Source: Astropecten irregularis
Lineage: Eukaryota; Echinodermata; Asteroidea; Paxillosida; Astropectinidae
Reading direction: 5' to 3'
Assembly: GCA_963971285.1 (NCBI GenBank)
Contig: OZ020265.1
Coordinates: 3,388,270-3,452,269, forward strand
DNA: 64,000 nucleotides
The notes under the pieces were generated by a model that saw only the letters and a program-made list of their open reading frames with translations, did not search any database and was not told the DNA's origin. The position numbers were made by a program, and so were the translations under genes. Below are positions 1,822 to 62,678 of this stretch, in pieces; position 1 is the stretch's first letter; each line of letters begins with the position of its first letter.

Positions 1822-1929
1822 CATGAACACGATGAACACGATGAACACGATGAACACGATGAACACGATGAACACGATGAACACGATGAACACGATGAAC
1901 ACGATGAACACGATGAACACGATGAACAT
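1822..1929. repeat. 9-bp tandem repeat (GATGAACAC)
   Basis: Twelve consecutive 9-bp units fill 108 bp. The first begins CATGAACAC and the last ends GATGAACAT; the rest are exact by eye. Because 9 is a multiple of 3, the array keeps a frame open and reads as Asp-Glu-His repeats in a short plus-strand frame (1666-1989). That frame has no other family feature, so I treat the array as a satellite and not as a gene. Confidence 0.9.
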
Positions 1930-5729: not shown

Positions 5730-5935
5730 TGAAAACCGTACTGTCAGACTGTACCAATGGTTGGAGGTGGCTGGTTTGAATCCTGCTCCGGTCAAATTTT
5801 CATCAAATAACCACAAGGGAAACTTACTGAATTTCAAGTCAGTGAAAGGTGAACAAAGAAAAATTGACTGGAGAAGGATTCGAACCAGCTACCTCCTGAA
5901 AACCGTACAGGCACTCTAACCAACTGAGCCTTCCA
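5730..5935. repeat. Inverted pair of tRNA-derived SINE fragments
   Basis: A plus-strand copy has a B-box-like GGTTTGAATCCTG at about 5773. A minus-strand copy (about 5870-5935) reads GGCTCAGTTGGTTAGAG then GGTTCGAATCC, a recognisable A-box and B-box pair spaced as in tRNA genes. The anticodon and acceptor arms do not form a normal tRNA, so these are SINE heads. Confidence 0.65.
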
Positions 5936-6134
5936 GCCCTATGTTGGTGGTGTCCCAAATAGTCAATTATCTTTGTTTGCTATCTTTGTTTGTCAGAAGC
6001 TCGTCAATTTTTCAGTGTTCATTTTTCAATGACTTCAAATTCAGTAAATTTCCCTTGTGTTCATTTGATATTTATAACATTGGTAAAATATGCGATCTTC
6101 TCTGGATTTGTAAGCAATCAAAGTGGAGTATTAC

Positions 6135-8802: not shown

Positions 8803-9025
8803 ATTGGCCCCAACGAAACCGAAGGGCACCAAAATAGTTTAAATAAGGCCTACACACAAAATGATTCCCCAAGTTGGAAAACGAGGGGTGCAATTGGCCC
8901 CAACGAAACCGAAGGGCACCAAAAAATTTAAGTAAGTCCTACACACAAAATGATTCCCCAAGTTGGAAAACGAGGGGTGCAATTGGCCCCAACGACACCG
9001 AAGGGCACCATAATTAATTCATTAC
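8803..9025. repeat. Tandem repeat, about 90-bp unit
   Basis: Units beginning ATTGGCCCCAACG start at 8803, 8893 and 8982, so the period is 89-90 bp with about 2.3 copies. Each carries CCGAAGGGCACCA and CCCCAAGTTGGAAAAC. A diverged copy of the second half follows near 9075-9135. Confidence 0.85.
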
Positions 9026-14192: not shown

Positions 14193-25296
<11,104 letters not shown>

Positions 25297-46200: not shown

Positions 46201-49200
46201 TTATTGCAATTGCAATTATTCTGCTTAAAGATTCGAGCATACATTATGTTCTGGTTATGAGGCCAGTTCAGACCATGGCTTGCAAGCAAGGCTTGGAGCT
46301 GTACGCTGAACATACTGTCAATCATATTTCTTGACAAGAACCAGTTGATTTCACCAAACTCATCATAACTTACCTGCGTGTACATATAGGGTAAGTCAGA
46401 TATACGATTGGTTATCCTTCGTAACTTGAGTTACTATGATTACGATAATTCGTAACTACGATTGATCGTAGGGCTTTGTGAAATCAACCCCAGGAATGCT
46501 ACTACTCTCCATGCAAACCTCCATGGCTAATAAGTACACTGTACTTGGTTTGATCATGCTTGTTATGTAGGTATTCTTCAAGGTACATCTGATCTCCTCT
46601 TTGTATTTGATGAAAGTGAAGTACGTAAGATTGTCAAGATGTGTGATCAAGTCCTGCAATACCTGGCTGTGAGTGAAGTGGTGGAAAGTATGGCAGATAT
46701 TGTCACCTTTGTGCAGGTAAGTGTTGAATATACATCTGTTTACTTTTTATTTTTGGTTATAAATGTGCAAGTTTAATTGCCAAATCTTTGACCAAAATTT
46801 GTTTCATAATGTGTTGCTGAACATTACATGTGATATACTTATAATGCAAGTACATAATCCATACATTGTTCAGATCTCTTGTAATATGTATATCATATCA
46901 ATAAACATTGTGTGTAGTTAATATCATTATAAGTCAGGGATGAGATTTCTCAGATTAAAGTCTGATTTCAGACTTTTGTGTTTTGGATTTCAGACTTTTT
47001 TCCTCACAGGCTGTGTACAAAAGTATAGGAGATATTCAGATTTCAGACATTTTATGCTCCTTGTCAGCTGTTTTCAGACATTTTTATCATTGGTCAATCT
47101 CATCCCTGATAAGTTCTGTACATGAATGTGATATGCAGTGACTACATATACAGTAATCTGAAGGGAACATGATGCTTGGGTGGCACACTGGCACCACACA
47201 GATTACAACACTGCGGTGGTGTCAGAACAGTTTGATATTTTGCACACTGCCAAATCATCTTTTATTGAAATCCGGGAAGCTGGAAAGTTAATTATGAGCA
47301 ACAGACCGGTGGGGAAATCCAGGAGATGTTGTCCATGCCGAATATTCTTCTAACTCTGTGTTCCTTTCAGGAATAAATCACCATCACCTGTTATATACCG
47401 TGCCGGAGTTGTAGTGCTCTAGACCAAAAAACATCACCATGTGAAGAGGGCGCCATTCAAAAACTTGTGCTCGGATTACGGGTTGACCACACTAAATAAA
47501 CTCCCATTAACCTTATTGTAAAATCCCTCAACTTCACAGTTATAAAAACCCCATCCAGGAGTCTTTCAGTTTTGGTGCAATACTGCAAATGGCAGTTTGA
47601 ACCCTCATCTACCCAATTCTTTTCAGTTCTTTTTCTCAGATCAGATTTGTTGCTAATTGCCCCAAGAAAAAACACCCCCAAAATGTTTTCCACAACCAAC
47701 TTGCTACCAGTTTTCATGAAGCAACACTCCGCATTTAAAACAATGTATGGCCAGATTTGATGCCAAAATTACACAATATATTTATGGCATGACCCCCAAA
47801 GATGCATATTTGAAAAGCATTTGAAGGTACAAATAATATGATAATCAGCTTGGCGCATTGATTTGGGACCTATGTTTTTTTTTAATGAGGTGCACCCATA
47901 CAGTTTAATGTACATAATATCCACAGAATCTGACACCAGGAGTGACTCAGATGAAGGGACAGGTATCAACACGTAGAGAGGAGCTGATCAGTGCTTATCA
48001 TGCTACTCAACTTGGCTATCATGTAGAACAGTTCCAGAAACTCATACCATTATTGGTCTCTAGTATGAAGATATATGTCACCATATTAGAACAAGGTAAG
48101 TTACTGTGTACCAAGTTAAGGTAGTATCATACTTTGGTAGCATACGGAAACAGAAATCTTCACAGAACTTACAGGGTATGAAGATGGTAATGGTAGAAAC
48201 GTACCGTTAATTTTTTTCTGCCTGAAATGCTGTATGTATCCAGAAAAGAGTAAAACCAATGACAAAAAACAATTTTGATCTTTTGAAGATAAAGAATGAT
48301 GATGAAAACATATTTAAACTACTATGGCCGTTTTTCACTGTTTTCTTAAGAAGTGTCGGCACCGTATATGACTGAAAATTTCATGTTGCTGTATGTTCGT
48401 TGATATCTTCGCCCATGAATCTGCATTTCTTTGGCAAAAAGCAAAGTATGATATTATCTTTAAAGCCGTCTAACTTAACACTGTTTTGTTATAATTATGT
48501 ACAGTACATGTATACATGTATAACTGGGCTGTGGTACTACTGTCTAGTTTGTAAATAACTAAATCAAATGGGGCAGTTGTGTGACCATGTAACATCAATT
48601 GATGTCATATGATACAGGACAGTTAGTCAGTGACCATGGTGCCTGACAAAGATTCATGACAGATATATGACCATGTATATGTACCTGTCAATCAATTAGG
48701 CAACTAGAAAATTACACCTGTATCCAGGTATTATGTGCACTGGTACTGGAATGTTCCTTCACACAGCACTAACATGTACTCAAGGGCTCATACAGCCCAT
48801 TGTGTCAAAGATAAAAAAAATGGGGTCAGCCGAAATAGAGAACAGTGTTGTTTTGATTGAGTGCATAGAATAATAGTTGCATGTATCTTTGATTTCAGTA
48901 ATATAATATGAATGACATCCTTCCTATGGTGTGTATTTCTCTTGATAGGTAAACCTGGTAAGCAGGAAGCATGGGAGAATCGTACCTATGTGGCTAGTAA
49001 GATGATCTATCATATCCAGGAGATTATCCGTTTGTTGCTGGCTGTGGTACGTTCACTCATCTTCACATTGTTTACTGAAACGTGTTATGAAAAGCAAATG
49101 TCAGTGTCCCTTTGGTTCAGTTCATTCTGTCGGGTACAGTATACACTGATCCAACGGCAAGACATACCATCTGCCATTACTGCGGTGTCCCCGTCCACCT

Positions 49201-52200
49201 GTCCTATGAGAACAAAAGAATTTGCGCTCTGCCACACTCTATACTGTGGGTGTACGTCCCCTCTTCGTGTAATATACACCGTATGGCCAATTACATGATT
49301 CATGCGTCAGATTCGTGTACCTGCTTTTGAGTCCTTCAAAACAATGTCCACACTGGATGCTTAGGCCCGGACACGTCCCCTATTCACAGGACTTTTGTTA
49401 TCTACAGGAACGTCTGTTAATTTGCACACACTTTTGAATTGGATGACAATGTCACCTTCTTTTGGCAGTATATAACACATGTCCAGTTAGGATAGAAACA
49501 TGCGTATGGTTAACGTACTTTGTGTAGTGTGCTGTGGTGAAATGTTAAAATGTAACAGGTTATTCAACCACTGAAGTGACAAGGATTTTAAAAAAATTAT
49601 TAAATATCTCCCAAATTATTGAGTAGTGACGTAGAACTGACAGACCTTATTGTGGTGTGGTCTTTGATACTTGGGGCTGATTTCATAACGCTCAATTTGC
49701 GACGCGTCGCAGCTTCGCATCTTTGCGATGAGTCCCTAGAGAAAGGATGTGTCTTAACTCTGTGATGCGTTTTAAGTTTTATGAAATTGTCCCTTGGTGT
49801 ACATAAATTTTAAGAAAACACAAAGCATTGTTTCATTCAATTCGTATTTGTATCATCATGTGGTTAGTTTCTTGTGTTCTAGCTGTTTTTGGTTAATGGT
49901 ATTATTTAATTGTGATATGACAGGTGATATTTGTTTTGTAGATAGGAAGACAGTATTGATGACCATGTATTGGAATCAGCAAATGAACTCAAGAAGGAAA
50001 ATAGTGATACAGAGTTTGTTTAGAGGTACAAGATTAGAATGAACTATTCAAAGTTCATGAAAAGCTATACTGGTTGACCTTGATGTACAATGTACATGTT
50101 GTGTATTGACGTACATAATGTATGAATTGCAAATTGATTAATGTGGTTTATTCATTCAGTCATTGATGTATGTATTTATTTGTGTTTAGGATGATGATAG
50201 TTTCCGTGTAGATGATGTGACTGGTCTACGTGCAGCTCAGAATCGCTTCAAGAACAATATGGGCAAGGCCAAGGCCTGGTTGGCTGATCCTAATGCACCA
50301 GCTGGGGGCATGGGTAAGTACACTACGGGGGTTTATCAAACAGAGGCTCAGGCTTCTGCTCCGGCTCCTAAAATAACGGGTATCAAAATAGAGGCTCTTG
50401 GCTGCAGTTCGGAATTAGACTTTCTGGTTTGAAAAGAAAGATTGAGCTGCAGCTTCAATGAAAAACCACAACCTGTATTTTCAGCATATGGATGACAGAG
50501 CCGGAGCCTGAGCCTTGTTTCGTAAACCCTGTATGTGCGCATTCAATTAGGCCGTCCTGAATCAGCCCCTGTGATGTTTTATTAGCTCTGATGTCATTCT
50601 TGGGGTTCACTTAATAGGGCAGCTAATGAGCAGGGTCTTTGGTGGGAAACACGTCACACGTATTCAAGATGGCGGAAATGTTAACAAGCATTCTGTTAGC
50701 CCAGCTGTGGTGGCTGACCCAAGTAACGTGACCTTGTTGTCTGAGATGAGCTATGAAATGCACCCAATAATCATTAAATGGCTTCATGTCAAATATATCA
50801 GCTTTATATCTCGGCCCAATTTCATGGAATTCTATTACGGCATATTGTTGTGCTTACGGGCACTGCTACACGTGTAATCTATTTCATGGAATCCATAAGC
50901 AAGATCATTTTCGGTTAGCGGAGAATTTCTAGGGTAACCGTGGTTATTTTCTGCTAACGCACTGTCATACACATTCTGCAGAAAAACCTTTGCTTACCAT
51001 TACCCAAAAAGAAAACTCTCCCTTGAAATACACTAACCGTAATAAAAAAAAGTCTGCTAACGTAAGCAAAGAATTTTTGTTAACAGTAACAGATTCTATG
51101 AAATTGGACCCTGGACTGTTGCCTCTCTTATCAGACTAACCTGTTGGCCAATGTATGTGTGATTGATTTATATTGATGGTTGTATGTAGGTGAGAAAGCT
51201 CTGCGATGTTTGTTGGAAGATGCTCGGAAGGTTGCTAGTGGCCTGGATGGACCAAAGAGAGCCGCCATAGAGCAGGCTGTAGATACAATCACTGCTATGG
51301 TCAATCAACTCTCAGATTTACGAGCAAAGGGCATGGTAAGATAAATGACCAGTATAATCCAGGCATTGTGTATAGTCATATTTATGTGGGAATTACTCCA
51401 CACTTGACCATTGAACATGGAAGGAGGAACTGTCTCAACATGAGTAGTTTAAGTAATTATTTAGAGAGTCTGTCTATGGATTCTCAAGTTTCCTCTCTCC
51501 ATAAAAAAACAAAACCGTCTCTGGATTCTCAAGTTTCCTCTCTCCATAAAAAAACAAAACCCACATGCCACAATACATGCCAATAACTCAGTCATGTTGT
51601 AGCTGATTCCTTATTAAATCATCCCCCAGGTGCCAGTAAGGATGATTAACCTCCCAAATTATATTACTGATATTTTACTTGATCACATTCAGACTTATAC
51701 CTTAAAAGACACAGAATCAAATTCATTGCATCAATCTGAAGGGTTGTGCATCCCTGCCCATTGTGTGTGTGTGTGTTTTTCAACCTGTCTTACAAATTGC
51801 AAAAAGATATTGTCTTCTAAATAAAGGAACATCTTTATGCACATAAGGACAAGAGATGTTTGGGCAATACTTGTTTGGAAATAGCTTTCATTAATCAAGA
51901 AAGTTAATTTTGATAATGTAATTCAATTATAAAATAAGACATTTGATGTTAATAATTGTAAGCTTGGAGTTAAGAGGATCTGACACGTTTTGATCCTAGC
52001 AGGATCTTTCCCAAAGGCTAAATGACAAGAGGACAAGAACATGCCTTTGGAGATAGATCCTGCTAGGATTGCAACGCATCAGGCATTTTATAAATTTCAA
52101 GTCATTTTTTTTTTTGCTGATAAGCAGTTTGCAGCAGTTTATTATTTGCTTAGAGTTAGGAGGGCCTGACACGTTTTGATCCTAGCAGAATCTTTGTCAA

Positions 52201-55200
52201 AGGCTAGTTTATTATTTGTATTAACTGTATACTTGATTGCATTGGTCAATCTCTACAGGGCAACTCTCCTGAAGCATTGAAACTAGCCAAGGATATCAAT
52301 GATAGGCTCGCTGGTCTGGAAGCTCAGATCAATGATGCTATTGCTGAAGTCTTGAAGACTAGTATGGGCAAGATGGCTTATACTGCAGGTGGAAAGATGG
52401 CACAAGCCAAAGGATGGCTCAATAATCCTGGTACTGATGACAAAGAAGTTGGTAAGAGCCATAGTCTCTCTCTAGTCTGTTGTCCAATAACTCATGTCTG
52501 ATACAGTTTGCAGAAGCATCTATAGTGCATCTACACACCTCAATGATAATTGCATGAGGAGCCTGGGTAAAAAGCAGAACTTGCTGAGTTTATTCATCTC
52601 ACTTATATACAGTTCAAAAGATGTTATGTAGACTCACGTATGATCAATGGGGTGAAGTGGCCTAGCTACTGGTCTTGTGTGTCCAACTCAAGGTCTTGTG
52701 GTCAATCAACAGATTGTGGGCTTAAATCCAGCCGTGGGTTAGTGGCACAGACATAAATAACCCATAGACTGACAGCGCCCTATTTAAATGCATGACGGGG
52801 TACCGCAATTGTGACGGCACCCAACTATTTACCCAACTATGGGCAAGAAAAGTTACTTTTACGCATGTTTGAATAGAGGGGATTTATTCTAACGGGAAAT
52901 TCTAGATGAAAACGAATTGGTATCAACTTTAAACCCATTGGAGCATTAGGTTTACCTCACATACCATTGCACAGTAATCTCAAATAATGGAAAGATTGAA
53001 TGAAAACGTTTGTGTTTGAAATTTCATCTTAATTTTATGAGAGGGAACTAGCGCAGGATTACGTGTGCAACTGGCACACTATGCCCATACGTTTTTTTAG
53101 ATGCCGTCCGTTTCTAAAATTACGTGCTCACGCCCTCTGCTGTCGGTCTATAGGTTATTTATATCTATGGCTAGTGGTGCTTGCATCCTTGGGCAAGACG
53201 CTTTGTCACATATTGCTCCTCTTCACCCAGGTGTAAATGGGTACCTGCGAGGGTAGAGATGGCTTTGTGGTTTGATTAGCCTCTGTGCACCTTACGGTAG
53301 CCGGGGCTTAATTATACTCTTCAGGGAGTTGAGATGGTTTCAGGAATGTAAATGTAGCCCAATGACCAGGTATATGTCTGTACGGCACTTTGATCTTCTT
53401 GTAAAGGTGCCTTATAAATACCCTAAGGTACAGTGCAGGATTGGTAACATACCCAAACAGAAATGTTCACAGATTTACCTATAACTTACAGGGTATGAAG
53501 ATGGTGCTGGGAGAAACATACCCCTAAAATATTTCTGCCTGAAATGGTGTATTTATCCACAAGTTAGTAAAACAACGACCGAAAACAGTTTTGATCTCAG
53601 GGTAAGATCAAACCATTCTTTATGTTTTATATAAGAAAAATTGAGTCACGTTTTTGCTATTTTCTCGTGACTCAATGTGCAAGCTTATCATTTCATGTAC
53701 ATGTTGGATTAGACAAAGTGTAAGTCCTGCTCTGTGACCTTACAATCATATATTATACCTTTAATGAACTGCATTTCTTGCTCCTTGTAGGTTACCGTGC
53801 TGTCAAAGATATCATAGAGACTGGTCGTCAGATAGCCAATACCTGTGAAGACTTGCACCAACGTAATGCTCTTCTCCAGCTTTGTAACGAGGCAGAAACT
53901 TTGAATGAACACTTGAAGGAGCTTTGCAGGAGAGGCCAGGTAAGATTGCTTCATATTGTGCCTGCACTTGTCTGCTATACAGACAAATTCTGACATTTAC
54001 AGGCAACATTTTACTTATGGTAATGATAAATTTAGGTGTGCTCAGTTTTGTTGTGTGTAGGTGTGTCTACATCAAATTCCATAATATCTGCACCTTCATT
54101 CAAGACATTTAAGTCTTCTTTGAGGCTGCTGATTTCTCCCAAATGACTGTTCATACGATCTGAATACCGCAATGTTGACTGATGATCCAAAACAGCAGAA
54201 ACATGTTTGAACTGAACTTCTCTGGTCCTTGAATACTGCATTGCATACTGAGTAATACTGAGTAATACTGAGTGACACTGAGTGGTACCGAGTGGTACTG
54301 AGTGATACTGCGTAATACTTAGTGATACTGAGTAATACTGAATAATAATAAATAAAACTGACTGATAGTGAGTGATATTGAGTGAAACTGAGTGGTACTG
54401 AGTGATATTGAGTGATACTGAGTAATGCCGAGTGATACTGAGTAATACTGTGTGATACTGAGTGATACTGAGTGATACTGAGTGATGCTGAGTAATACTG
54501 AGTAATACTGAATAATACTGAATGATAGTGAGTGAAACAGTGATATTGAGTGATACTCAGTTATAATGAATGATACTGTGTGATATTGAGTAATACTGAA
54601 TAATACCTCAATACTGAAAAATACTGAATAATACTGAATGATAGTGAGTGATAGCGAGTGAAACTGAGTAATGCTGAGTAATACTGAGTGATACTGAGTA
54701 AAACTAAGTGATACTGAGTGATACTGAGTGATACTGAGTGATACTGAGTAAAACTGAGTGGTATTGAGTGAAACTGAGTAATACTGAGTGATGCTGAGTG
54801 ATGCTGAGTAATACTGAATAATACTGAGTAATACTGAATAATACTGAATGATAGTGAGTGAAACTGAGTGGTACTGAGTGATATTGACTGATACTCAGTA
54901 ATAATGGGTGATACTGTGTGATATTGAGTAATACTGAATAATACCTTAATACTGAATAATACTGAATAATACTGAATGATAGTGAGTGATAGTGAGTGAT
55001 ACTTAGTGATACTGAGTGATACTGAGTGATACTGAGTGATACTGAGTGATACTGAGTAATACTGAGTGATACTGAGTGATACTGAGTAATACTGCATTGC
55101 AAACCGAGTAATACTGAGTAATACTGAGTGATGCTACGTAATACTGAGTGATATTGAATAATACCTGAATAATACCTTAATACTGAATAATACTGAATAA

Positions 55201-56356
55201 TACTGAATGATAGTGAGTGATAGTGAGTGAAACTGAGTAATGCTGAGTAATACTGAGTGATACTGAGTAATACTGAGTAATACTGAGTAATACTGAGTGA
55301 TACTGAGTGATACTGAGTAATACTGCATTGCAAACCGAGTAATACTGAGTGATGCTACGTAATACTGAGTGATATTGAATAATACCTGAATGCCAAATAA
55401 TACTGAATGATAGTGAATGATAGTGAATGATACTGAGTGAAACTGAGTGGTACTGAGTGATACTGAGTTATAATGAGTGATACTTTGTGATATTGAGTAA
55501 TACTGAATAATACCTGAATACTGAATAATACTGAATGATAGTGAGTGATAGTAAGTGAAACTGAGTAATGCTGAGTAATACTGAGTGATACTGAATGATA
55601 CTGAGAAATGCTGAGTGATGCTGAGTAAAACTGATTACTGAGTAATACTGAGTGATACTGATTGATACTGAGTAATACTGCATTGCAAACTGAGTAATTC
55701 TGAGTAATACTGAGTGATACTGCGTGGTACTGCGTAATACTGAGTGATACTAAATAATACCTGAATACCAAATAATTCTGAATGATACTGAATGATACTG
55801 AGTGGTACTGAGTGGTACTGAGTGGTACTGAGTAATACTGAGTAATACTGAGTAACACTGAGTATTACTGGTCCTTGAATACTGCATTGGAAACTGAGTG
55901 ATACTGAGTGATACTGCGTATTACTGAGTGATACTGAATAATACCTGAATACCAAACAAAACTGAATGATACTGAGTGAAACTGAGTGGAACTGAGTGGT
56001 ACTGAGTGATTCTGAGTGATACTGAGTAATACTGAGTAATATTGAGTAATACTGAGTAATACTGAGTGATACTGAGTGATACTGGATGATACTGAGTAAT
56101 ACTGAGTAATACTGAGTAATACTGAGTAATACTGGTCCTTGAATAATGCATTGCAAACTGAGTAATACTGAGTAATACTGAGTGATACTGCATAATACTG
56201 AGTGATACTGAATAATACCTGAATGCCAAATAATACTGAATGATAGTGAATGAATCTGAGTGAAACTGAGTGGTACTGAGTGATAGTGAGTGAAACTGAG
56301 TGGTACTGAGTGATACTGAGTGATACTGAGTAATACTGAATAATACCTGTATACTG

Positions 56357-56387
<31 letters not shown>

Positions 56388-59300
56388 AAGGCATTTATAT
56401 AGCGTTCTTACACAATGGTATCACAACGCTTTACAATAACTGGAACACAATACAAATTACAGTTACAATACAAAGCTACTCAACTGAATAATAATGAATA
56501 ATACTGGATGATAGTGAGTGATAGTGAGTGAAACTGAGTAATACTGAGTAATACTGAGTAATACTGAGTAATACTGATTAATACTGAGAGGTACTGAGTG
56601 ATACTGAGTGATACTGAATAAAACTGAGTAATACTGAATAATACTGAATAATACTGAATGATAGTGAGTGATAGTGAGTGATAGTGAGTGATAGTGAGTG
56701 ATAGTGAGTGATAGTGAGTAATACTGAGTAATACTGATTAATACTGAGTGATACTGAGTGATACTGAGTGATACTGAATAAAACTGAGTAATACTGAATA
56801 ATACTGAATAATACTGAATGATAGTGAGTGATAGTGAGTGATAGTGAGTGATAGTGAGTGATAGTGAGTGATAGTGAGTGATAGTGAGTGATAGTGAGTG
56901 ATAGTGAGTGATAGTGAGTGATAGTGAGTGATAGTGAGTGATAGTGAGTGAAACTGAATAGTACTGAGTGATACTGAGTGAATAAATTATTATTCTTGGT
57001 GACACTGAGTAAACCTGAGTGACACTGAGTAAACCTGAGGGACACTGAGTAATACTGAGTTATACTTAGTAATACAAAGTAATACTGAGTTAATACTGTG
57101 TACTGGGGAACAAAAGACTTAGTGCACATATTACTGCCAGGAAATGTGTCCGTTTTCACTGTTTTCTCAAAAAGTGGGCACTGTATGGTACTGAAAATTT
57201 CACAGATGGCTGTTATTGTATCTTCCTTGATATTTTTGCCCATGAATGTGCCTTTTTAATGATTTTTTTTATGACGTATGATATTACCTTTTAATGCGTT
57301 CCAGCTAGAATCCAGACTAACATTTCAGATATGGTATCTTTGTCTAGGGTAATACTCCACAGGCAGAAGCTACTGCTAAGAAGTTATCATCTAAGCTAGA
57401 TGGAATCAATGAGAAGATGACAGAGATTGTCATGGGTCAGGTTACAGCAGACTTCCTGGATCCATTGTCTGCTAGTCATAAACTACGTGAGGCTGCAGTA
57501 GCACCTGAAGGTATGTAACATCATCATCATAAATAATCATCATCAATTATTTGATGATTTCATCCATTAAAAAGCTGTATTCTCTTCGAGTGATCCCCAT
57601 GTACCATTCTCATGTTGCAACATTGTTAATGCTGCACATATGGATAAAATGATAATTGGGATATAGCAGTATGTGCGTGACTGGTACATGTAATGTATGG
57701 TTTTATGTTGATATTGTATAGGAACACCCCAACGTGCTGCCAATTTTACCAGCAAGGCGCAGATATTTCTTGATGGAAGTAACAATGCAGCAGAAACTGC
57801 CACTCGTTATGCCGGGATTGGAAATGCTGATAAGGACACAGTAGATCAGATTCATCGCCTTAGTAACCAGGTTTGCTTATAGTTTATGTCCGTTGTTAAT
57901 GGCCATGTATTAGGGAGGTTTCGCATCCAAACAGATACGCATATGTTTAGCTATCAGTAAACGTCAACAGCCAATCAGATATTACAACGGATAGCAGAAA
58001 AACTGTGATGAAAAACTGTAAAGTACACAAATACTGGTGACGTACATATATCCGGCGCTCTAACCGTATCTGTTCACTTGCGAAACCTGTCTAATATTGA
58101 CTACTGTGCGATATAGATTGAATTATTCCTTTAAATATGTTCATTATAACCAAACTATAAAAGCCTTTACCGTTGTAACCAGGAGCCAATTTCATAGAGC
58201 TGCTTAAGCACAAAATTTGCTTAATCATGAAAACAGGATTACCAACCAAATATTCATGTGATGTTCAATGCTTTTGACTTGTATTCAGCTACTTGTATAA
58301 TATGTGATCATCATAGTCATTTCTTAATGCAATAAAGTATGAAGTCTGTTTTATTATTTTATTATGGTCAATTGAATAAGTTTTGCTCTTATTTAAAGGT
58401 AGTATCATACTTTAATATAATTGATAGAATAGCTGCGGTCTGTTCATAATATGATTTGTCATGAAATAAAAACAAACCTGTGAAATTTTCAGCTCAATTG
58501 ATCATTGAAAACAGTACAAAACAGCGAAAAACCATTGCAGTTGTTACGTGAATTATGGTAATTGTAATTGTGAGGTTTTGATCTCAGAGATCAAAACTGT
58601 TTCTGTGTTTTGTTTGGCTCATTTCTGGAAAACTACAGCATTTCAGGCAGAACAAATTTAATGGTATGTTTGTATCAGGTCCATCTTTATACCCTCTAGA
58701 TTATCTTAAATCTGTGAACATTTCAGTTTTGGTTTCCTACCAACGTATGATACTACCTTTAAGAGAATTCTTTCCCAGATGTTTTATATTTGAGGATTCG
58801 TGGTTGATCATAGTGTTTGTTATTTACAGGTGAAGGAGATGGCTCCACAGTATGTATCAGCAGCTCGTATTGTACTGATGAATCCTGACAACAAGGTAAT
58901 CAATGTACAATCTCACTACATACATCACATCTATACATTAGAGTACATATTACCATCCTACATAACTGTTAATGAGAAACTTGGGAAAACTTATCTTTAA
59001 TGATACACTGCAGCATCCCACGTATATCAATTAGTATATGCAAAGCCTCAAATCTTTCTTAATTCAATGGTGCAAAGCCTAATTTGCATATTTTCTATCT
59101 CCCTTCCAAAATAATTTAATATTCATGATTTACTGCGGTACCCGCCGCGATATTGGATTTGATTCACCCAGCTGACCCCAGCTAGCTTGGCGGCCTAGTG
59201 GTATGGCATCTGTACTAGTAAGCAGGAGGTCGTGGATTCGAATCACACCTAAGCCAGCACATGATTTTTTCACTTGCACTCACAAGCCCTGGGTATACAG

Positions 59301-62300
59301 TGCTCATCCATGTCGGTGAAGGTCAAGACTAATTTGCATATTATCTATTTCCCGACCAAAATAATTTAATATTCCTGATATATCAATGATGTCCAGTGTT
59401 GTAATAGTATCTAGTTGGTGTTAATAGGTTGCAGTATCTCATGTATATCCAGTGTTGTAATAGTGTCTTGTTGGTGTTAATAGGTTGCAGTATCCCACAT
59501 ATATCCAGTGTTGTAATAGTGTCTTGTTGGTGTTAATAGGTTGCAGTATCTCACGTATATCCAGTGTTGTAATAGTGTCTTGTTGGTGTTAATAGGTTGC
59601 AGTATCTCACGTATATCCAGTGTTGTAATAGTGTCTTGTTGGTGTTAATAGGTTGCAGTATCCCACATATATCCAGTGTTGTAATAGTGTCTTGTTGGTG
59701 TTAATAGGTTGCAGTATCTCACCTATATCCAGTGTTGTAATAGTGTCTTGTTGGTGTTAATAGGTTGCAGTATCCCACATATATCCAGTGTTGTAATAGT
59801 GTCTTGTTGGTGTTAATAGGTTGCAGTATCTCACGTATATCCAGTGTTGTAATAGTGTCTTGTTGGTGTTAATAGGTTGCAGTATCTCACATATATCCAG
59901 TGTTGTAATAGTGTCTTGTTGGTGTTAATAGGTTGCAGTATCTCACGTTTATCCAGTGTTGTAATAGTGTCTTGTTGGTGTTAATAGGTTGCAGTATCCC
60001 ACATATATCCAGTGTTGTAATAGTGTCTTGTTGGTGTTAATAGGTTGCAGTATCCCACATATATCCAGTGTTGTAATAGTGTCTTGTTGGTGTTAATAGG
60101 TTGCAGTATCCCACATATATCCAGTGTTGTAATAGTGTCTTGTTGGTGTTAATAGGTTGCAGTATCTCACGTATATCCAGTGTTGTAATAGTGTCTTGTT
60201 GGTGTTAATAGGTTGCAGTATCTCACATATATCCAGTGTTGTAATAGTGTCTTGTTGGTGTTAATAGGTTGCAGTATCTCACGTATATCCAGTGTTGTAA
60301 TAGTGTCTTGTTGGTGTTAATAGGTTGCAGTATCCCACATATATCCAGTGTTGTAATAGTGTCTTGTTGGTGTTAATAGGTTGCAGTATCTCACGTATAT
60401 CCAGTGTTGTAATAGTGTCTTGTTGGTGTTAATAGGTTGCAGTATCCCACATATATCCAGTGTTGTAATAGTGTCTTGTTGGTGTTAATAGGTTGCAGTA
60501 TCTCACGTATATCCAGTGTTGTAATAGTGTCTTGTTGGTGTTAATAGGTTGCAGTATCTCACGTATATCCAGTGTTGTAATAGTGTCTTGTTGGTGTTAA
60601 TAGGTTGCAGTATCTCACGTATATCCAGTGTTGTAATAGTGTCTTGTTGGTGTTAATAGGTTGCAGTATCTCACGTATATCCAGTGTTGTAATAGTGTCT
60701 TGTTGGTGTTAATAGGTTGCAGTATCTCACGTATATCCAGTGTTGTAATAGTGTCTTGTCGGTGTTAATAGGTTGCAGTATCTCACGTATATCGAGTGTT
60801 GTAATAGTGTCTTGTTGGTGTTAATAGGTTGCAGTATCCCACATATATCCAGTGTTGTAATAGTGTCTTGTTGGTGTTAATAGGTTGCAGTATCTCATGT
60901 ATATCCAGTGTTGTAATAGTGTCTTGTTGGTGTTAATAGGTTGCAGTATCTCACGTATATCCAGTGTTGTAATAGTGTCTTGTTGGTGTTAATAGGTTGC
61001 AGTATCTCACATATATCCAGTGTTGTAATAGTGTCTTGTTGGTGTTAATAGGTTGCAGTATCTCACATGGATGGAATGAAGAGAGAGTGGGAAGAAGCCA
61101 TGGAGGAGCTTGATAATAAGTTGACCTCATCTTTGGACGTTCCTGCATTCATGAAGGCTTCAGGTATGAATTTTAGCAACTTTTATCTAGATTTTATCTT
61201 CTTGTCTTAAATATAACTCTAGTCTATTTAGTTTGTATGAAACAAAGTTAGTTCTGTATTTGTTAGTAACCAGCGATTTCAAAATGTATGTAGCGCCTTT
61301 GATCACTTTGTAAGTGGAATTGTCTGCGCACTATAAATACAAATGATTATTATTATTATTATGTTTTGACGTGCATCTTTCATATGATAATTCAAGTATT
61401 AAGGTTTTCTGTTCTTGACATGTTGTACATGTACTGTGTGCCAACAAATCACAGGCAACTTGGATGTGCATTCTTCTGGTCACTTCACACAATGTAACAA
61501 CAGAGACCAAGTAACACAAAATTAGATTGTTGTAATGAAAAACTCACTATAAATGTTGCCCTGTGAAGGAACTTGACATTTCCTTTGTCATGGTAATACT
61601 TCCATGTGCAGATGTGTTTGGATATTCAGTCTGTGTTATAGATATTCTTGATGGTTTGTTTTGTGGTTGATATAGAGGAAAGTATGAAGAAGCAGACTGA
61701 GTTAGCCAAAGCAGCCGTCATGCAGAACAACCCTCAGTCATATGCATCGTGTCTTCCAAATATCGCACTACGAGCCAAGAATATGGTCAAAGTAGCCAAA
61801 CGAGAAGCTGAGAATACCGAAGACCCAGAGTTTAGACACAAAGTGGATACTGCTGCAGACAAGCTCCAGTCTTGTAAGTTGTTGAATGTCACGCTTCTCT
61901 GCACTTCCTTTTGTGTAGATGAGAAGAGGTCATAGTAATCAGCGTTGTTCCAAAGGGAAGTGTCATTTTTTAGTAAATTACACCGACTCAAATGACACAT
62001 TCCTCATGGTTTCTTTTATAAAGTGAATTATTGACAGTGAGGAGCTCAATATGTTCAAGGTATAATACATGATTGTAAAGCTCACAGAACAGCACTCAAA
62101 CTTTGTCTAATTCAACATCTACATAAAATAACACACCTGTGAATATTTACTAATTTCTGGATAAATACACCATTTCAGGCAGAAATGTTTTAACGGTATT
62201 TTTCTACCAGCCCCATCTTCATATCCTGAAAGTTATACGTAAATCTGATTTCATTTGTGTTTGTGTATGTTACCAATCCTGTACTGTATGATGCTGTGTG

Positions 62301-62399: not shown

Positions 62400-62440
62400 G
62401 TAATGAGTCTTTGCCATGCAGTCTTTTGTATCATCATATC

Positions 62441-62678
62441 CAGTGGCGCACCCAGGAAGGGGGCCTCGGGGGTTGGAGCCACCCCCCCCCCCCCCCAAGA
62501 GGTTCCCTGAAAAAAAAAAAGAAAAAAAATGGGGGAGAGGGAAAGGGACAGGAGGAGGAGGAGGGGGAGGGGGAGGGAAGTCACAAAATGTTTTTTGGGC
62601 GTTTTGTGGGAGAAATGTTTTCTTTGAGCCCCCGCCCCCCCCCCCCCCCCCCAAGACAAAATCCTGGGTGTGCCGGTG
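62441..62678. mobile_element. hAT-like foldback with poly-C tracts
   Basis: The ends CAGTGGCGCACCCAGGA and TCCTGGGTGTGCCGGTG are near-inverses. The 8-bp flanks ATCATATC and ATCCTATC match at seven of eight positions, an hAT-type target duplication. Two long C runs and purine-rich GGAGGAGG tracts fill the interior. The glycine/proline-rich frames here are artefacts of this composition. Confidence 0.8.

What the first reader, a model, noticed from the sequence alone, without database searches (positions are those of the whole stretch)
59392..61071. Thirty tandem copies of a vinculin splice acceptor
The 56-bp unit contains the 3' end of intron 13 plus the first 15 bases of exon 14, and unit starts fall at exactly 59392 + 56n for n = 0 to 29. 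So 29 decoy acceptors with the same TTAATAG and GTTGCAGTATC context precede the real one. If a decoy were used and the array kept as exon, translation would read [10 protein letters not shown] and stop at TAA. How the last acceptor is chosen is not obvious. Exon definition from the donor at 61164 is my suggestion, since it favours the 112-nt exon over 168-nt or longer versions. Array length could then modulate vinculin splicing or nonsense-mediated decay.
Basis: partly seen in the sequence, partly recalled or inferred. Interest (0 to 1): 0.88.

Follow-up and report, generated by a model that had tools for sequence, protein, structure and literature searches.

The report
Thirty-copy splice-acceptor repeat in vinculin gene
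An animal vinculin gene carries thirty near-identical head-to-tail copies of the junction where one intron ends and the next exon begins, of which only the last keeps the protein's reading frame; it is a large example of a known oddity of lancelet genes called a mirage, and a natural test of how cells pick the right splice site.

Summary
A 56-bp unit is repeated 30 times at 59392 + 56n; the 18-base core TTAATAG|GTTGCAGTATC occurs 30 times, all in the array. The gene is an animal vinculin: the predicted protein runs without a gap from exon 58830-58895 into exon 61052-61163 against solved vinculins. Only the last of 30 acceptors keeps the frame; the 29 others stop after ten codons. The kind of thing is already described: minisatellites spanning an exon-intron boundary ("mirages") in lancelet Adh3, globin, troponin C and PGBD5 genes, reported as not disturbing splicing (passages). 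So this is a new, long and uniform member of a known kind. All 30 acceptors score within about one bit, so the deciding signal should lie elsewhere. Where the repeat ends, a strongly purine-rich, enhancer-like stretch begins, which no decoy has. I favour exon definition anchored by that stretch and the donor at 61164, with the array near-neutral.

The parts
59392..61071 (+). Array of 30 x 56-bp units (mirage-type minisatellite); each unit = 36 nt of intron 3' end + 15-17 nt exon start + junction
   Evidence: TRF; unit table; core count
58830..58895 (+). Vinculin exon upstream of the array (66 nt, ends in phase 0, donor AAG|gtaatc)
   Evidence: spliced alignment; phmmer
61016..61071 (+). Unit 29 (last), holding the only acceptor of the 30 that keeps the reading frame: TTAATAG|GTT, exon starts 61052
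61052..61163 (+). Vinculin exon after the array (112 nt), open; donor CAG|gtatga at 61164
61069..61128 (+). Purine-rich, GAR-rich stretch right after the array; candidate exonic splicing enhancer missing behind every decoy
   Evidence: 72% purine, 9 GAA/GAG v 45-48% and 0 or 1 for 29 decoys, (enhancer function inferred)
59009..59028 (+). Candidate fossil repeat unit (18 of 20 bases; unit column 39 to column 2 of the next unit), same intron
   Evidence: score 30, 0 of 1000 shuffles reached it, shuffle maximum 28; BLAST E 0.32 over the whole window; weak to moderate
59174..59344 (+). tRNA-derived SINE-like insert in the same intron, between fossil and array
   Evidence: Rfam tRNA 59184-59256 at 30.0 bits (cut-off 29); 80% identical copy at 16631-16803 minus

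Best explanation
It is a mirage-type minisatellite: a 56-bp segment straddling an intron-exon boundary of an animal vinculin gene was tandemly duplicated and then expanded and homogenised to 30 copies, most likely by slippage or unequal exchange. The original boundary stays at the 3' end, so 29 copies became part of the intron and the protein is unchanged. Splicing most likely uses only the last acceptor: it alone is followed by the exon body, whose first bases after the repeat form a strong purine-rich, enhancer-like stretch, and by the donor 112 nt away, so the exon is defined from its 3' side. Any use of a decoy gives a stop after ten codons and presumably decay of the mRNA. Shown: array, frame, decoy stops, near-equal acceptor scores, purine contrast. 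Inferred: enhancer activity, exclusive use of the last acceptor, mode of expansion, near-neutrality of the array.
For: Array and uniformity. 0 of 29 decoy readings open, the last open. All 30 acceptors score 7.06-8.09; the real one is 5th of 14 acceptors of the gene, leave-one-out. Stretch +18 to +77: 72% purine and 9 GAR triplets, highest of the 14 exon starts examined, against 45-48% and 0 (28 decoys) or 1 (1 decoy). Flanking introns 2156 and 512 nt, the class in which sites closest across the exon are favoured (abstract). The same architecture, 3' end of an intron plus 5' part of the exon, is described as a mirage in lancelet BflGb6, with RT-PCR suggesting regular splicing (passages).
Against: No RNA data, so use of the last acceptor is inferred from frame and protein homology. 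The purine-rich stretch may reflect only its codons (Glu/Lys/Arg-rich). For alternative 3' sites PMC9225289 finds an overall preference for the upstream site, only reduced in the exon-definition class. Assembly error cannot be excluded. Species unknown, so the link to lancelet mirages is by architecture, not by lineage.
Confidence: 0.78

Rival explanations
1. The array is a functional dosage control: a share of transcripts uses decoys and is destroyed by nonsense-mediated decay, and array length sets vinculin output.
For: All 29 decoys score like the real acceptor and all lead to a stop after ten codons. A human intronic VNTR goes with changed ABCA7 splicing and expression by length (passages).
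Against: Lancelet mirages are reported not to disturb splicing (passages). In ABCA7 it was exon skipping that rose with length, while the two frameshift events did not change. Nothing here tests array length.
Confidence: 0.08
2. Decoys are used in stepwise (recursive) splicing: each TAG|GT works as acceptor and then as donor, so the array is removed in steps without leaving exon sequence, or leaves in-frame 15-nt VAVSH micro-exons ending in CAC|GTATAT.
For: AG|GT in 30 of 30 units; CACGTATAT in 13 units and CATGTATAT in 2; 15 nt keeps the frame.
Against: Donor scores: regenerated AAG|GTTGCA 1.78, CAC|GTATAT 3.17, CAT|GTATAT 3.52, against 6.80-11.61 for 12 donors of the gene with the same matrix. 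Left out one at a time, the weakest real donor falls to 4.25, so the gap to 3.52 is not large. Pieces of 41-56 nt would be extremely short introns (general knowledge).
Confidence: 0.04
3. The array is an assembly or sequencing artefact (false expansion of a short repeat).
For: Tandem repeats are error-prone; at lancelet BflGb6 the draft genome appears to be aberrantly assembled (supplement legend) and PGBD5 copy numbers differ between two sources of the lancelet genome.
Against: Several unit types are interspersed along the array, with private variants in units 0, 5, 9, 24 and 25, as in real minisatellites; a wrong copy number is still possible.
Confidence: 0.07
4. The unit is a dispersed satellite of this genome that happened to supply the acceptor and first exon codons.
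For: The window holds other tandem and dispersed repeats.
Against: Outside the array the window's best matches are 10 to 20 bases long, the longest being the candidate fossil in the same intron; the first exon residues align without gap to other vinculins. The rest of the genome could not be searched.
Confidence: 0.03

Closest known systems
Lancelet mirages (Adh3; globins BflGb6 and BflGb9; troponin C; PGBD5), PMC3087553 and PMC3902484
   Same: Minisatellite-like tandem duplication of an exon-intron boundary; in BflGb6 the 3' end of an intron plus the 5' part of the exon; many repeats carry AG/GT signals (passages)
   Different: Here 30 units of 56 bp, 97% alike, in vinculin; the passages give 6 and 3 units of 150-160 bp for two haplotypes of BflGb6, 2 to 7 units of 60 bp and 3 to 6 of 108 bp for PGBD5, and unit lengths of 10-72 bp for Adh3. 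Copy numbers of Adh3 not seen (Canestro 2002 not held)
Human IFI6 (G1P3) minisatellite with multiple splice donor sites (Turri 1995; title seen in a reference list)
   Same: A minisatellite that multiplies a splice site
   Different: Multiplies donors, not acceptors; paper not read
ABCA7 intron 18 VNTR (PMC5954066; passages)
   Same: 25-bp repeat whose unit starts with a donor; one unit can be retained, giving a frameshift; length linked to splicing and expression
   Different: Donor side; what rises with length is skipping of the next exon
Intron gain by tandem duplication of AG|GT proto-splice sites (model cited in PMC3087553)
   Same: AG|GT within a tandemly duplicated boundary
   Different: No sign of a new intron here; the array lies within one intron at this boundary

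Membership tests
Mirage minisatellite | Tandem repeat unit spans an exon-intron boundary | tested here: met
   36 nt intron + 15 to 17 nt exon per unit
Mirage minisatellite | An authentic boundary is kept and the gene product stays intact | tested here: met
   Last unit carries the in-frame acceptor; gap-free protein alignment, (by sequence, not by RNA)
Mirage minisatellite | Repeats do not disturb splicing of the mRNA | not testable with these tools
   No RNA data
Mirage minisatellite | Length instability between haplotypes or cells | not testable with these tools
   One sequence, no reads
Mirage minisatellite | Found in a lancelet (where the published cases that I saw come from) | not testable with these tools
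   Species not identified; the search for homologous proteins switched off, the genome search not answered in 10 attempts (last)
Recursive (ratchet) splice sites | Acceptor directly followed by a competent donor | tested here: not met
   AG|GT present, but donor scores 0.38 and, after joining, 1.78, against 6.80-11.61 for 12 donors; rough matrix
Structured decoy array (RNA fold hides sites) | Fold more stable than shuffles | tested here: not met
   Last four units only: z -0.49, 60 of 200 shuffles as stable

The most novel reading that the evidence does not exclude
A hypervariable, somatically unstable array of full-strength decoy acceptors acts as a rheostat on a core adhesion protein: the more units, the more first-step spliceosome assembly is lost to decoys and decay, so vinculin level varies between individuals and cells by repeat length, held in check only by the enhancer stretch behind the last unit.
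Probability: 0.07. Interest if true: 0.78.

Novelty: new member of a known kind. Interest (0 to 1): 0.42.

Why it matters
Thirty acceptors that are identical from -36 to +11 apart from four single-base changes, of which presumably only the last is used, make an unusually clean natural test of what decides between equal 3' splice sites: whatever chooses should lie beyond the repeat. It also shows that such an array can reach 30 copies in a core cytoskeletal gene without breaking its reading frame, and offers a sequenced starting point for asking whether mirages are neutral, seed new introns, or tune expression. If the species is not a lancelet, it would extend a phenomenon that I saw reported only from lancelets.

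Tried and rejected
Recursive splicing and micro-exons: donors in the array score low. RNA structure hiding decoys: z -0.49 for the last four units. Other boundaries of the gene duplicated in the same way: of 26 boundaries tested against 2.5 kb on either side (52 tests, 60 shuffles each) only the one at 61052 exceeded all its shuffles (94 against 30); the next, 39618, did not (26 against 30). Block duplications inside the array: longest repeated run of unit types is 5, reached by 1238 of 2000 shuffles, so no evidence of higher-order structure. Variable columns cluster at 48-56 (4 of 8 variable columns in units 0-28, hypergeometric p 0.017; 25 of 29 differences from consensus), but most of these variants are shared between units, presumably by descent, so I do not read it as selection. 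Branch site: left open; CTCAC with its A at 61009 lies 43 nt upstream with two other AGs in between, and the TAA at 61027-61028 does not fit yTnAy. Pfam on read-through frames of 48101-57102: nothing vinculin-like, although exons of the gene lie there, so that scan was simply not sensitive. A 23-base piece of the unit in viral and prokaryote contigs: none, as expected for an animal gene; the tool says that records of the window's own genome may be left out. Taxon: not found.

Rows dropped and limits: the spliced alignment script printed its result and then ended with an error in a last saving step. It gave 20 exons, 19 acceptors and 19 donors; I kept 14 and 12 for scoring, leaving out, by eye, acceptors 50485, 50631, 50933, 51195, 62576 and donors 49046, 50317, 50553, 50727, 51061, 57870, 62406 as doubtful. 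With so few sites the scores are rough.

Full report
WHAT IS THERE. Tandem Repeats Finder reports 59392-61066 with period 56, 29.9 copies, 97% matches and no indels. Cut in register, 30 units start at 59392 + 56n, each 0 to 3 bases from the consensus. The core TTAATAGGTTGCAGTATC is found 30 times in the 64 kb, always in the array, and columns 26-47 are the same in 30 of 30 units.

THE GENE. In it exon 58830-58895 (66 nt, phase 0) is followed by 61052-61163 (112 nt). I translated that join and searched the PDB sequences with 125 residues: 16 distinct sequences match, the best six named vinculin or metavinculin, then VIN1 (6bfi, E 1.8e-13), then nine catenins (E 3.3e-06 or weaker). The best, 1st6 (chicken vinculin, species recalled), aligns over 123 residues without a gap, 672-794, E 9.3e-24. 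The query was built on the last acceptor; the free choice of 61052 comes. The alignment to the bait ends before the C-terminus; the gene presumably runs off the window's end.

THE UNIT. Columns 1-36 are the 3' end of the intron, columns 37-51 the first 15 bases of the exon (GTT GCA GTA TCT CAC = VAVSH); units 8, 14 and 28 share 17. Types: T48-G52 16 units, C48-A52 9, T48-A52 4 (counting the last unit), T48-C52 1. Outside columns 48-56, units 0-28 differ from the consensus at only 4 of 1363 positions, inside at 25 of 261. This looks like expansion from a few founder units with homogenisation (inference). I found no higher-order blocks beyond chance. A 20-base stretch at 59009-59028, 18 of 20 identical and running from the exonic part of the unit over the unit junction, lies in the same intron on the far side of a tRNA-derived SINE. 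No shuffle of 1000 reached its score, but the best came close (28 against 30), and over the whole window its BLAST E-value is only 0.32; it is a candidate fossil unit, not a proven one. The array makes up 77% of the 2156-nt intron.

WHICH ACCEPTOR. Only the last gives an open exon: 29 of 29 decoys stop after ten codons. The other AGs of the last unit also fail (exon lengths 143, 132 and 105 nt, stops after 30, 15 and 6 codons). A position matrix from 13 other acceptors of the gene scores the real site 8.09, fifth of 14, and all 30 array acceptors between 7.06 and 8.09. So the acceptor itself hardly separates the real one from the rest. What differs begins where the repeat ends, 15-17 bases into the exon. 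From +18 to +77 the real exon is 72% purine with 9 GAA or GAG triplets and includes GGAAGAAG; the 29 decoys have 45-48% purine and 0 (28 decoys) or 1 (one decoy). It is the highest of the 14 exon starts compared. Of 2000 sampled 60-mers of the gene region 1 reaches it in purine content, 1 in GAR triplets and 2 in purine pentamers; these may well overlap the site itself. This is the look of a purine-rich exonic splicing enhancer (general knowledge; not tested), although the codons alone could cause it.

MECHANISM. With flanking introns of 2156 and 512 nt the exon falls in the long-long class in which, by PMC9225289 (abstract, section 9, passages), sites nearest across the exon are favoured; the paper puts the switch near 250 nt. 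I did not check which species its database covers. Section 9 says that alternative 3' sites overall prefer the upstream one, and that the strong upstream preference of the short-intron class is significantly reduced in the long-long class. Reed and Maniatis 1986, cited there, carries the role of exon sequences in its title (reference list; paper not read).

ALTERNATIVES. Stepwise splicing through TAG|GT, or 15-nt in-frame micro-exons ending at CAC|GTATAT, is formally possible, but the donors are weak: 1.78 for the joined AAG|GTTGCA and at most 3.52 in the array, against 6.80-11.61 for 12 donors of the gene with the same matrix, or 4.25-10.94 leave-one-out. The last four units do not fold better than shuffles (z -0.49). 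Of 26 exon boundaries tested, none but 61052 is duplicated nearby beyond its shuffles.

WHAT IS KNOWN. [quoted passage not shown] PMC3902484 (passages) adds troponin C and PGBD5; the PGBD5 copy numbers differ between two sources of the genome, and its splicing was predicted rather than shown by RNA over the repeats. The vinculin array meets the architectural definition. Whether it is spliced normally and varies in length cannot be tested here, nor whether the animal is a lancelet. Donor-side cousins are the IFI6 minisatellite (title only) and the ABCA7 VNTR (passages).

LITERATURE LIMITS. Nine answered paper searches in a library of open-licence papers listed no report that I recognised of such an array in vinculin; several listings were cut to the best rows. 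One search asked for vinculin, tandem repeat and splice acceptor together: 6 papers, none on this by title and start of abstract. Canestro 2002 is not held.

VERDICT. Real observation, sound reading of frame and stops, but a known kind of structure. The new points are the size and uniformity of this example and the sharp contrast between what precedes and what follows the last acceptor.

Noticed in passing
window 54245-57090: Array of a 10-bp unit (ATACTGAGTG), about 284 copies at 77% matches, inside the vinculin intron between exons 53791-53939 and 57348-57510.
   Followed up: no
window 59174-59344 (+), 16631-16803 (-), 18991-19077 (-), 5865-5938 (-): tRNA-derived SINE-like family: the first three places are related by BLAST; Rfam tRNA hits at 59184-59256, 16721-16793 and 5865-5938. 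I did not compare the 5865 hit with the others.
   Followed up: partly
window 59075-59132 and 59325-59382: 58-nt direct repeat, 88% identical, 250 bases apart, around the SINE-like insert; its start resembles the end of the copy at 16631-16803.
   Followed up: partly
window 19906-24110 (-): Long open frames of 252, 637, 128 and 379 aa that look, by eye, like gag, pol and integrase of a Ty3/gypsy-type retrotransposon.
   Followed up: no
window 1823-1928 (+): Perfect array of the 9-bp unit ATGAACACG, 11.8 copies, lying in a 119-aa open frame that reads as a (DEH)n repeat.
   Followed up: no
window 8803-9019: 89-bp tandem repeat, 2.4 copies, 93% matches.
   Followed up: no
window 62440-62650: Long runs of C and G beside the last vinculin exons in the window, a likely place for sequence errors.
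   Followed up: no
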